From NCBI GenBank assembly GCA_019637335.1, contig JAHBVV010000001.1, forward strand, positions 565,440 to 629,439: DNA of 64,000 nt, in the 5' to 3' direction. The notes below the pieces were generated by a model that was not told the origin of the DNA, did no database searches, and saw only the letters and a program-made list of their open reading frames with translations. Position numbers and translations under genes: made by a program. Shown piece after piece: positions 14,978 through 37,205 of the stretch (positions within the stretch are counted from its first letter, which is position 1; each line of letters begins with the position of its first letter). The DNA is from Candidatus Hydrogenedentota bacterium (GTDB lineage: Bacteria > Hydrogenedentota > Hydrogenedentia > Hydrogenedentales > JAEUWI01).

Positions 14978-15008
14978 CCCGCCGCCATTCCGGCACGCCG
15001 GATCCACC

Positions 15009-15154
15009 GTGATACGGGCTTTCTGCCCGGCCCGAAATCCTCGTCATTCCATCGGTTATGATCCGCGCCTCCGGCGCTGAAGGAACGGTATTCAGGGCTG
15101 AAAACCCGCTCCATAGCGCTCGTAATTCATCGGCAATATCAAAACGGCGCCCTT
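15009..15154 (+). repeat. Truncated copy of MITE family A
   Basis: It matches the right half of the element at 36896-37205: GATACGGGCTTTC..., CGCTCCATAGCGCTCGTAATT and a terminal AATATCAAAACGGCGCC. The left terminal repeat is absent. It is flanked on the right by TTAAAA, the same motif found beside the copy at 27748-28375. Confidence 0.7.
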
Positions 15155-15245
15155 AAAAAACGGCCCATTTCTTCAGGGTAATCGCATTTATCCCCGACCG
15201 CGGCATCGGGGCGTTATCTTGAATCGATTTGGAGCCCTGAATCAA

Positions 15246-15485
15246 CGAAAGTGCAATTCTTTAGCCATCTGAAGTAGTCGCCCTCGTCGCACCCAACGGT
15301 GGCGGCTCTCGGTGATCGAGCACCGTCATCCCCACGAAAGTGGGGATCCAGAGACCATGCAACGTTAACCTCGCAATCCCTCTGGATTCCCGCCTTCGCG
15401 GGAATGACGAATACATCCAGTGTAAGTAAGGAATCTCGTATCGGCGAACGCCTTACTTCAGACGGCTAAAGAATTACCGAAAGTG
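15246..15485. mobile_element. 224-bp MITE (element E) with terminal inverted repeats and 8-bp target duplication
   Basis: The element spans 15254-15477. The left end AATTCTTTAGCCATCTGAAG and the inverted right end TAATTCTTTAGCCGTCTGAAG give arms of about 22 bp with one mismatch. CGAAAGTG stands on both sides (15246-15253 and 15478-15485). The GTAA-type tip and 8-bp duplication are hallmarks of the IS66 family, so an IS66-mobilised non-autonomous element is likely. Its core contains a GTCATCCCC/GGGGAT palindromic unit of the widely dispersed kind. No coding capacity. Confidence 0.75.
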
Positions 15486-15790
15486 CAATTCTTTAGCCAT
15501 CTGAAGTAGCGCCAGCCCATTCTTGTCATGCCGAGATACTACGACGAGAGCGCGCCAGGCTGGGAGCGCAGGCGTCCCCGCCTGCAATGCACCGGAGGTG
15601 CATGGCGTGTTTGCAATATCGGCGCCTTAGAGCAGGGAGACGACTGAACCCGGATCACCACCGTTTATCCGATTCGCGCCTTCGGCGCGATGCGGGCGGG
15701 CCGCCCGCGCTCCCATTTGTCCGCACTTCCGTTGCGGCGCGGGATTTTTCGTCGAGGAATCAAGCCCACTTCATTCCGCTAAAGTATTAC
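15486..15790 (+). mobile_element. 305-bp MITE, family B copy 1
   Basis: It shares its left end with the neighbouring element E (AATTCTTTAGCCATCTGAAG), and its right end GCTAAAGTATTAC inverts to GTAATACTTTAGC. The interior (GGGAGCGCAGGCGTCCCCGC, CAATGCACCGGAGGTGCATG, CCGTTGCGGCGCGGGATTTTTC) is closely similar to the element at 27809-28114. The right flank does not repeat CGAAAGTG, so the pair may have arisen by recombination between shared ends. The whole stretch 14978-15806 contains these repeats and no gene. Confidence 0.75.
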
Positions 15791-15806
15791 CTCAATGTTA
15801 ACTGGG

Positions 15807-17414
15807 TTATAAATCTACAAGACCTTCCGTAGATTCCAACCGCCTTTGGATAGCCAGCGCCTCCTGGTGGAAATGTTCCGAACGTTCGATATCTCCGCGC
15901 GCCGACGCCAATCCACCCAGTGCCGCCAGCCGGGTCACCTGCCTATCGAGTTGCCCCTTGGCGCGCTCGATTTCGAGGGATTGCAGGAAAAGGGTTTCCG
16001 CTGCGTCGAGATCATCACGCGCCCAGGCGATGGCGGCGAGGTGTGCGAGAATAGTAGCTTCTACATTTGACCGGCCGATTTGGCGGTATAGGTCCAGCGC
16101 CTCGCGAAGATATCCCTCAGCTGCGTCGAGGTCTCCCTTATCGAAAGTGACGGCGCCAAGGCGGCTCAAGGCACTGGCCTCTCCCGCAGTGCGCCCGACG
16201 CTTCGATCTAGTGCTAGCGCCTGACCAAAGTAATCCGCGGCACGTTCAAGATTTCCGCGTGTCCGTTCGATGTCGCCGAGCTCTGCGAGGGTATCCGCTT
16301 CGCCATCGACATGGACGGCTTGTCTATAGATTTCTAGCCCTTGACGATAGAGTCTTTCGGCACTGTCCAGATTGCCCCTCGCCTCTTCATTGCTGGCAAG
16401 ATTGGCAAGCATGTTTGCTTCGCCAATATCGCTGCCGACTTCTTTGTAAACGGCTAATGCTTCGCGAAATAAAGCTTCCGCATTGTCCAGGTCTCCACGC
16501 GCCCGAATAGCACTTCCAAGATTGCCCAGCGCACTGGCCTGGCCGTGAAGGTTATGCGTTCCGCGATAGATTTCAAGCGCCTTCCGATAGTGGGATTCAG
16601 CACTCTCTCCATCGCCGCGCATTCCGGAGAGATACGCCAGATTGGACAATACTCCCGCATGGTACTCGGCCAAGCCGCAGTCGACACACACGTCAAGCGC
16701 CTGATGGAGGATGCGTTCTGCTTTCTCAGGATCGCCGATCCAATTGTATAGAAACCCCAATTCCTGCAACCAATTCAGGAGGTGCGGTGCGAGCCCTTCG
16801 TTTGGAGGCAAATCGACCTGGGCTATTCGTTGCTCCAATTCAGCGATGCGAAATCGTTTCTGCGTTGCATCAAGGTTTCTGGAAATCCCGTAGCTGTCCT
16901 CACACCCTTCGCGAACGACCACTTCCTGGCTCAACCTTGGCGCGACAAACTCAAAGCCGTGGCTCCGGTATCGCCAGAAATCGGGGGCTTGTGAGGGGAG
17001 TAGCGCTGCCACATACGCGGGCACCCAGAATACGACCGGGCAGGGGAAGCGGGTTTCCCACAAGTCGCGCGAGGCGTTCAAAGAACGCAGGGTCGGGTGT
17101 TCTTCGGTCTCCGAGGAAACGGAGTGTTCGATGCCTGTCATGAAGAGCGCGGGAGGGTGGATCGTCTCTAATTGACTCGTCACTTCGCCATATACATCCA
17201 CACACCCGCGGGGCAAGCTAACGACGGCCAGATCAGGGTGGCTTTTTCGGACGCTTTCAATGCAATAGTCCCTCAATATGGGACTATTGCATACGGCAAC
17301 CGAGATGGAAAAGGTATTCGCCGAAATATCAAGCAGTCGCCGGAGCGCGGCGAGTTCCGCGGCCTGCTCCTGGGTTTCGCGGCCGGAGAGCATGTCGGTG
17401 GCGGCGCGCGCCAT
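15807..17414 (-). CDS. TPR-repeat protein paired with a P-loop ATPase
   Basis: 535 residues. Residues 1-185 form a domain with ISVAVCNSPILRDYCIESV, ALFMTGIEHSV and LNASRDLWETRFPCPVVFWVPAYV...APDFWRYRSHGFEF. This pattern is typical of the N-terminus of TPR proteins in Cyanobacteria and Chloroflexi that resemble the sensor part of STAND NTPases. From about residue 205 to 530 there are at least eight TPRs of the 40-residue kind (for example GDLDNAEALFREALAVYKEVG). The ATG at 17414 follows the ATPase stop by one base (TAAGATG), so the two are translated together. A role as sensor or scaffold for the ATPase is likely; a defence role is possible but not shown. Confidence 0.85.
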   Translation of the reverse strand: MARAATDMLSGRETQEQAAELAALRRLLDISANTFSISVAVCNSPILRDYCIESVRKSHPDLAVVSLPRGCVDVYGEVTSQLETIHPPALFMTGIEHSVSSETEEHPTLRSLNASRDLWETRFPCPVVFWVPAYVAALLPSQAPDFWRYRSHGFEFVAPRLSQEVVVREGCEDSYGISRNLDATQKRFRIAELEQRIAQVDLPPNEGLAPHLLNWLQELGFLYNWIGDPEKAERILHQALDVCVDCGLAEYHAGVLSNLAYLSGMRGDGESAESHYRKALEIYRGTHNLHGQASALGNLGSAIRARGDLDNAEALFREALAVYKEVGSDIGEANMLANLASNEEARGNLDSAERLYRQGLEIYRQAVHVDGEADTLAELGDIERTRGNLERAADYFGQALALDRSVGRTAGEASALSRLGAVTFDKGDLDAAEGYLREALDLYRQIGRSNVEATILAHLAAIAWARDDLDAAETLFLQSLEIERAKGQLDRQVTRLAALGGLASARGDIERSEHFHQEALAIQRRLESTEGLVDL

Positions 17415-27739: not shown

Positions 27740-28383
27740 TTAAAATGGGGCGCCGTTCTGGTATTACCGCACCTCGGCAGTGGGGAAGTTAGAAAAGTCT
27801 CGATTTTAGGTAATACTTTAGCCGTATGAAGTAGCGCCAGCCCATTCTTGTCATGCCGCGTTACTACGACGAGAGCTCGCAAGGCTGGGAGCGCAGGCGT
27901 CCCCGCCTGCAATGCACCGGAGGTGCATGGCGTATTTGCAATATCGGCACACTTGATCGGCGAGAGAATTGGAGCCGGACTACCGCTGATTAGCAGACTC
28001 GCGCCTCCGGCGCGTTGCGGGCGGGCCGCCCGCGCTCCCATTCGTCCGCACTTCCGTTGCGGCCCGGGATTTTTCGTCGAGGAATCAAGCCAGCTTCATT
28101 CCGCTAAAGAATTACGATTTTAGCAGTTCGGCGAAAACCCGTTATGATACGGGCTTTCAGCCTTGGCCGAAATAGCCGTCATTTTTCCTGGGCCTGCGGC
28201 CCAGGCTGATATGATCGGGCGCCTTCGGCGCAGAAGAAATGATATTCCGAAAATAAGGGCCGAAGGCCTGCTTCAAACCAGCCTGGGCCATCGGCCCAGG
28301 CAAAGGGCTCAAACAGGTGATAAGGGCTGAAGGCCCGCTCCATAGCGCTCGTAATTCATCGGTCAGAACTGCACCTTAAAATG
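27740..28383. mobile_element. MITE family A copy, interrupted by a nested MITE, with 8-bp target duplication
   Basis: The element (27748-28375) has TTAAAATG on both sides (27740-27747 and 28376-28383). Its left end reads GCGCCGTTCTGGTATTACCG and its right end GGTCAGAACTGCACC, matching the intact element at 36896-37205. It is interrupted at 27809-28114 by a family B element. Without the insert and its duplication it is about 314 bp, close to the 310 bp of the intact copy. Confidence 0.85.
27801..28122 (+). mobile_element. 306-bp MITE family B copy 2, nested, with CGATTTTA target duplication
   Basis: Element 27809-28114 with ends GGTAATACTTTAGCC and (inverted) TAATTCTTTAGCGG. CGATTTTA occurs directly on both sides (27801-27808 and 28115-28122). 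The uninterrupted family A copy at 36940-36965 shows a single CCGATTTTT at the matching point. GTAA-like tips and the 8-bp duplication suggest IS66-type transposase in trans. The stretch 27512-28498 is made of these elements and a palindromic GGAGCGCCGGC unit near 27620; no gene. Confidence 0.85.
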
Positions 28384-36805: not shown

Positions 36806-36895
36806 GGGGATCTCCTCGCGCGCGGGCCTGCCTGACGCCCGCGCCATCTATAGTGTACCACGCGGCGTTAACTTTTCCCGGCCTGAATTTATTCG

Positions 36896-37205
36896 GGTGC
36901 AGTTCTGATATTACCGCGCCCGGACTATGGGCAAGTTAGAATTGTCCCGATTTTTGAAATTCGCCGGAAACCCACTATGATACGGGCTTTCAGCCTTGGC
37001 CGAAATCGTCGTCATTCTTCCTGGGCCTGCGGCCCAGGCTGATATGAGCGTGCGCCTTCGGCGCTGAAGAAACGGCATTCAGGGCCGAAGGCCTGTTTCA
37101 AACCAGCCTGGGCCGTCGGCCCAGGCAAAGGGATCCAATAAGCTATGAGGGCTGAAGGCCCGCTCCATAGCGCTCGTGATTCATCGGCAATATCAGAACT
37201 GCACC
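36896..37205 (+). mobile_element. Intact 310-bp MITE family A copy with 17-bp terminal inverted repeats
   Basis: GGTGCAGTTCTGATATT at 36896-36912 is repeated in perfect inversion at 37189-37205. The interior has several small hairpins, for example CTGGGCCTGCGGCCCAG and GCCTTCGGCGC. No clear target duplication here (TTTATTCG against CATTGATT). No ORF of note. It fills most of the space between the lipoprotein and sulfatase genes. Confidence 0.85.

What the first reader, a model, noticed from the sequence alone, without database searches (positions are those of the whole stretch)
15246..15790. Back-to-back MITEs with IS66-like tips (GTAA, 8-bp duplication)
Element E (15254-15477) has about 22-bp inverted ends and CGAAAGTG on both sides, and a family B element starts at once after the second CGAAAGTG. 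Both share the tip AATTCTTTAGCC. IS66-family transposons are known for GTAA tips and 8-bp target duplications, which suggests that an IS66-like TnpC system mobilises these tiny elements. E also carries a GTCATCCCC palindrome of a dispersed repeat family in its core, so one repeat appears captured inside another.
Basis: partly seen in the sequence, partly recalled or inferred. Interest (0 to 1): 0.6.

Follow-up and report, generated by a model that had tools for sequence, protein, structure and literature searches.

The report
IS66-driven MITEs carrying captured REP palindromes
Two tiny non-coding jumping elements sit back to back; they belong to a large, species-restricted burst that was most likely moved by an IS66-type transposase found in the same genome, and each carries inside it a copy of another repeat family whose own means of spread is an open question.

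Summary
E (15253-15477) and B (15485-15790) abut, separated by 7 bp of duplicated target. Both belong to large families in the host genome. I paired 107 elements with GTAA-type tips; exactly 8 bp of flanking DNA is duplicated (45 of 107 perfect, 73 of 107 with at least 7 of 8; about 0.5 and 0.9 expected when partners are shuffled). Paralogous empty sites confirm the boundaries. B has one left-type and one right-type IS66 end; E has two left-type ends. Outside the tips E and B are unrelated. In place of transposase genes each carries a dispersed REP doublet: a CGTC-type REP dimer in E, a different doublet in B. These doublets also occur outside the MITEs, and their palindromes are far better conserved than the rest of the element (0.6% against 10.8% divergence in B). 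Correction: at this locus the duplication is 7 bp in strict register, and B has no clean duplication. Verdict: ordinary in mechanism (IS66-family MITEs), but an unusually clear case of a DDE transposase dispersing CGTC REPs.

The parts
15245..15252 (.). ACGAAAGT, left copy of the target duplication of E
15253..15477 (.). Element E: 225-bp MITE with two left-type IS66 ends
15253..15277 (+). E left tip GCAATTCTTTAGCCATCTGAAGTAG (identical to B left tip)
15324..15351 (+). CGTC-type REP palindrome CGTCATCCCCACGAAAGTGGGGATCCAG inside E
15382..15409 (-). second, inverted CGTC-type REP palindrome inside E (CTGGATTCCCGCCTTCGCGGGAATGACG on +)
15454..15477 (-). E right tip, GTAATTCTTTAGCCGTCTGAAGTA read inward
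15478..15484 (.). CGAAAGT, second copy of the duplication, junction between E and B (one base short)
15485..15790 (.). Element B: 306-bp MITE with left-type and right-type IS66 ends
15561..15585 (+). REP-like palindrome TGGGAGCGCAGGCGTCCCCGCCTGC inside B
15691..15715 (-). inverted partner of the REP-like palindrome inside B
15766..15790 (-). B right tip GTAATACTTTAGCGGAATGAAGTGG read inward, 92% over 25 bp to the IS66 right end
27810..28115 (.). second B copy in the window, perfect 8-bp duplication GATTTTAG
   Evidence: L059
2463..2560 (+). truncated B fragment that stops inside the REP palindrome (end approximate, read by eye)

Best explanation
E and B are non-autonomous miniature elements (MITEs) of an IS66-family transposon. 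A single-gene IS66 element (TnpC only) in the same genome, or a lost sister of it, recognised the conserved ends (GTAA-N2-CTTTAGC-N4-TGAAG) and inserted the short elements with 8-bp target duplications at AT-rich sites. B pairs a left with a right end; E pairs two left ends. E, younger and with 99% identical kin, most likely inserted into the 8-bp site that borders B, which gives the back-to-back layout. The interior of each is a captured dispersed REP doublet. Shown: tips, duplications, empty sites, intact TnpC with matching ends, interior repeats that also occur outside the elements. Inferred: that TnpC acts in trans, and the order E after B.
For: 8-bp duplication in the exact register only (mean identity 0.79 at 8 bp, at most 0.33 at 4-7, 9 and 10 bp; 45 of 107 perfect, 28 more with 7 of 8; shuffled partners 0.47 and 0.40). 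Empty sites without gaps across the junction: L146_1112_1418 (B type) against L127 (96%, 157 bp) and window 36987-37143 (93%, 157 bp); L074 (B type) against L009 (94%, 136 bp); L142_2122_2346 (E type) against L046 (93%, 151 bp) (80 of 107 elements tested). Intact IS66 TnpC: PF03050 131.8 bits, zf-IS66, NF033517 279.7 bits over cut-off 180; D249, D299, E420 invariant among 4 aligned sequences. B right tip 92% over 25 bp to the IS66 right end; E right tip 16 of 16 to the IS66 left tip. Independent relatives: Rhodopirellula solitaria and Aporhodopirellula aestuarii TnpC elements show GTAACTATTCAGC tips with perfect 8-bp duplications. Second back-to-back case: L127, GATTTTTG-331 bp-GATTTTTG-225 bp-GATTTTTG, gap exactly 8.
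Against: The one intact IS66 element has no recognisable duplication (AAAAAAAA / AAAGTGTC) and is single copy, so its own recent activity is not shown. It shares only tips with the MITEs (29 bp at most), so they are not simple deletion products of it. In the window pair itself the duplication is 7 bp (E) and 5 of 8 (B). 34 of 107 paired elements match at 6 of 8 or fewer. A sibling species (G001) has B-type MITEs but no PF03050 hit.
Confidence: 0.9

Rival explanations
1. The MITEs are moved by another transposase, now lost or not assembled (another IS66 subgroup, possibly one that needs TnpA and TnpB), and the surviving TnpC-only element merely has similar ends.
For: The survivor is single copy, lacks a visible duplication and shares only tips with the MITEs. 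G001 carries MITEs without a PF03050 hit. A degraded IS66 gene lies at C25.
Against: The survivor's tips match the 22-mer patterns without mismatch, and no other PF03050 element is intact: the two weak hits have the same score and frame length, and the copy tested (L037, the L033 place) is IS256-type, Transposase_mut 371.7 bits.
Confidence: 0.2
2. The REP doublets are the real movers (for example through a RAYT-type tyrosine transposase), and the IS66 tips are passengers that happened to flank an expanding doublet.
For: Both doublets also exist outside paired IS66-tipped elements: 36 of 76 exact CGTC units and 51 of 78 exact 25-mers (some of these lie in elements cut by contig ends or not paired). 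The palindromes are the best-conserved part.
Against: The 8-bp duplications and empty sites lie exactly at the IS66 tips. Five 152-bp B derivatives lack the doublet, and 3 of the 5 have duplications of 7 or 8 of 8.
Confidence: 0.07
3. The back-to-back layout arose by tandem duplication or recombination, not by a second insertion in the first element's target duplication.
For: The 39-nt direct repeat covers the short duplication plus the first 25 bp of both elements, and E's left tip differs from its nearest kin at 4 of 25 sites while the rest of the element differs at 2, so some exchange between the two tips took place.
Against: Beyond the tips E and B are unrelated, so no tandem duplication of one element. 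L127 shows the clean form of the same layout with three perfect 8-bp copies.
Confidence: 0.15

Closest known systems
IS66 family, TnpC-only single-gene elements
   Same: GTAA tips, 8-bp duplication, DDE TnpC with zf-IS66 domain; planctomycete relatives with the same plan
   Different: E and B encode nothing; only the tips are shared
Bacterial MITEs derived from other IS families (MITEPsy1/ISPsy2; MITECca01/IS982), PMC3189936 and PMC9769881 (passages read)
   Same: short, non-coding, tips match a full IS in the same genome, target duplications in MITEPsy1
   Different: parent family is IS66; five families in one genome; one family has two ends of the same type; interiors are REP doublets, not remnants of the parent
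CGTC-tagged REPs, family CGTC-1 (PMC3733652; abstract, sections 6 and 7 and passages read)
   Same: E interior: CGTC tag, 8-bp stem, 4-bp loop, CCA tail, inverted dimers
   Different: that paper reports no dedicated transposase for CGTC REPs and only fortuitous association with transposase genes; here 40 of 76 exact units lie within IS66-tipped elements
REPINs / GTAG REPs moved by RAYTs (PMC3116915, search listing only)
   Same: B interior is an inverted doublet of a REP-like hairpin that also exists alone
   Different: no GTAG tag seen; RAYT not searched for

Membership tests
MITE of an IS66-family element | terminal inverted repeats matching a full IS66 in the genome | tested here: met
MITE of an IS66-family element | 8-bp target duplication directly next to GTAA tips, as a family | tested here: met
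   45 of 107 perfect, 73 of 107 with 7 or 8
MITE of an IS66-family element | clean 8-bp duplication at E and at B in the window | tested here: not met
   E 7 bases after a one-base slip; B 5 of 8
MITE of an IS66-family element | precise empty sites | tested here: met
   paralogous sites for E-type and B-type elements; not for the window pair itself
MITE of an IS66-family element | no coding capacity, short, many copies | tested here: met
   (35 E-type, 44 B-type among 107)
MITE of an IS66-family element | mobilised in trans by TnpC | not testable with these tools
   needs an assay
IS66 element (the full copy on C4) | TnpC with DDE residues and zf-IS66 | tested here: met
IS66 element (the full copy on C4) | 8-bp duplication at this copy | tested here: not met
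   AAAAAAAA / AAAGTGTC
IS66 element (the full copy on C4) | accessory tnpA and tnpB | not tested
   no room for them inside the 1525 bp; not searched elsewhere in the genome
CGTC-1 REP dimer (E interior) | CGTC tag, 8-bp stem, 4-bp loop, CCA tail, inverted pair | tested here: met
   related dimers in Azospirillum plasmid records match only the core of E, about 67-157
REPIN with RAYT (B interior) | RAYT gene and GTAG tag | not tested
   inverted doublet present and found alone; RAYT not searched

The most novel reading that the evidence does not exclude
IS66 MITEs serve as the dispersal vehicle for CGTC REP dimers and a second REP doublet in this lineage, and the palindromic cores are then kept nearly invariant, by selection or by exchange with free copies, while the carrying element decays around them: a two-layer system in which a DDE transposase spreads REPs that have no transposase of their own.
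Probability: 0.35. Interest if true: 0.65.

Novelty: new variant of a known kind. Interest (0 to 1): 0.47.

Why it matters
CGTC REPs are widespread palindromes for which the paper I read states no dedicated transposase and leaves open whether RAYTs or others move them (PMC3733652). Here a DDE transposase family offers a concrete, testable route: dimers riding inside IS66 MITEs, with target duplications and empty sites. The unequal decay of core and carrier also gives a within-genome test of whether REP palindromes are under constraint.

Tried and rejected
Considered and rejected: IS66 parentage by simple internal deletion (MITE interiors do not match the full element beyond 29 bp). The two further PF03050 hits on C6 and C26 as IS66 sources: the C6 copy is IS256-type; the C26 copy, read through with stops as X in one frame, gave no family, and I treat it as the same type only because of its identical score and frame length. 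RNA families: none at gathering threshold in 15000-16000. Plasmid records hold only part of E, never most of it (13 records, none covering 80% of E). No solved structure matches TnpC at E 0.01. The strand folds of E and B are more stable than shuffles, which the palindromes and inverted ends explain; not used further.

Bias checked: B copies were mostly found by similarity to B, which could favour intact palindromes. Two B copies found by tips alone still show 1 of 90 changes in the palindromes against 65 of 421 elsewhere; two copies are few.

Limits: the genome search listings show about 100 rows and score 40 candidates, so the 131 clusters fetched are a sample of the copies, not all. The organism was not identified.

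Literature: 'not in print' is claimed for nothing; searches listed no paper that I recognised as reporting IS66-derived MITEs or REPs in IS66 MITEs, in a library that lacks most subscription journals; of the listed papers I looked inside four only.

Full report
Observation. E and B are real and abut.

Copies in the genome. The window lies in G000 (7.16 Mb, 55 contigs; C1:565440-629439). The left-type 22-mer tip hits 260 places and the right-type 260 at up to 3 mismatches (overlapping sets), against 1 and 0 for the reversed control. DNA searches with E and B gave 87 and 45 matches (40 candidates scored each). I fetched 131 clusters, a sample because listings were cut, and paired tips in them plus the IS66 locus: 114 pairs, 107 after dropping outer pairs that share an end and pairs with short flanks.

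Target duplications. Only the 8-bp register shows identity (0.79 mean; 0.21-0.33 for 4-7, 9 and 10 bp). 45 of 107 are perfect and 28 more match at 7 of 8; the same flanks with shuffled partners give 0.47 and 0.40. The targets prefer T two bases before and A two bases after an S-A-A-W-W-T-T-S-like octamer (73 elements, both orientations). Joined flanks of 80 elements (6 or more of 8) were compared with all fetched sequence; several give ungapped paralogous empty sites over 136-159 bp at 88-96%, for both E-type and B-type elements. One of these empty sites is window 36987-37143.

The parent. PF03050 finds one intact IS66 TnpC in G000 (C4, L031). The element is 1525 bp with one 490-aa frame that fills it; tips GTAACACTTTAGCCGTCTGAAG and GTAACACTTTAGCGGACTGAAG. 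PF03050, zf-IS66 and NF033517 all pass their cut-offs. D249, D299 and E420 are invariant among four aligned sequences; that these are the DDE residues is recalled knowledge. Against it: no duplication at its own flanks. The 28 relatives found (25-62% identity) are mostly from Planctomycetota by title; of 19 whose ends I inspected by script, two (Rhodopirellula solitaria, Aporhodopirellula aestuarii) have perfect 8-bp duplications beside GTAACTATTCAGC tips, one (L177) has tips almost like the MITEs', a few more have matching GTAA ends without duplication, and for the rest I found no convincing pair of ends. A broken IS66 gene lies at C25. Two weaker hits are, where tested, IS256-type.

Families. 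The 107 elements form families of 44 (B-type, including five 152-bp forms), 35 (E-type), 12, 10 and 5, plus the IS66 element. By tip type, 36 of 44 B-type are left/right and 34 of 35 E-type are left/left. E and B match each other only at the tips (25 of 25 left-left; a 14-bp match at E 0.05 is the best elsewhere).

Interior. E holds two inverted palindromes that fit the published CGTC-1 REP plan (CGTC tag, 8-bp stem, 4-bp loop, CCA tail; PMC3733652 section 6). E-type lengths cluster at 225, 294, 365, 432 and 570, that is 225 plus about 69 times 0, 1, 2, 3, 5, as if REP units had been added or lost. B holds an inverted doublet of a 25-bp hairpin. Of exact matches, 40 of 76 CGTC units and 27 of 78 25-mers lie inside paired IS66-tipped elements; others stand free, for example on C2, C9 and C10 and in the sibling genome G001. 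G001 also has B-type MITEs (L199, 297 bp, duplication 7 of 8), with 8 tip places against 287 in G000, while G002 has 0 and G003 has 1: the burst is mostly confined to this species among the four genomes of the genus held. The 25-mer occurs in 3 of 20 relatives searched, the own genome included.

Conserved cores. In 39 B copies the palindromes diverge 0.6% per site from consensus, other interior 10.8%, tips 10.6%; in 20 E copies 2.6%, 7.3% and 7.8%. Only the true placement reaches the observed value among 256 and 175 circular shifts. Gaps were left out; 3 of 39 B copies have gaps in the palindromes. Two tip-found B copies show 1 of 90 against 65 of 421. Selection, conversion with free copies, and residual search bias all remain possible.

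The 152-bp forms lack the doublet with a joint at GGGAGCGC-ACTTCC, and 3 of 5 keep duplications of 7 or 8 bases: the doublet is not needed for movement.

How the pair arose. E is 99% identical to a copy on C18, B at most 92% to its nearest full-length kin, so E is the likelier newcomer. L127 shows the clean layout, three perfect GATTTTTG octamers around a 331-bp and a 225-bp element, which suggests that insertion can reuse the octamer next to an existing tip; 2 such pairs among 8 neighbouring pairs in the sample. E's left tip differs from its nearest relative at 4 of 25 sites and the rest of the element at 2, and it equals B's left tip, so the two tips have exchanged sequence; direction unknown.

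Verdict. IS66-driven MITEs are a known kind of thing in mechanism; the REP cargo, the left/left family and the conserved cores make it a variant worth a test.

Noticed in passing
L031 2436-3419 (C4): A 327-aa frame on the other strand ends within the IS66 right tip, which supplies its last codons and stop (HFVTL*); the element seems to have truncated a gene without Pfam match.
   Followed up: partly
L142 / C25:39147-41042: Two E-type copies with nearly the same flanks (CATGGTCG / TATGGTCG) bracket a degraded IS66 gene, like a small composite or a duplicated segment.
   Followed up: no
C3:294358, C4:89009, C11:83831, C20:37120 (L212-L215): CGTC REP units in arrays spaced about 138 or 147 bp, mostly without IS66 tips.
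   Followed up: partly
contig ends C8, C12, C41, C46, C51 and others: Several contigs of the assembly end in or near these MITEs, so true copy number is probably higher.
   Followed up: no
window 36895-37143, 28154-28333: Another dispersed repeat family, into which several of the MITEs have inserted elsewhere in the genome.
   Followed up: no
L065 451-1665: A 1215-bp element with IS66-type tips and a 7 of 8 duplication but no transposase frame recognised by eye.
   Followed up: partly
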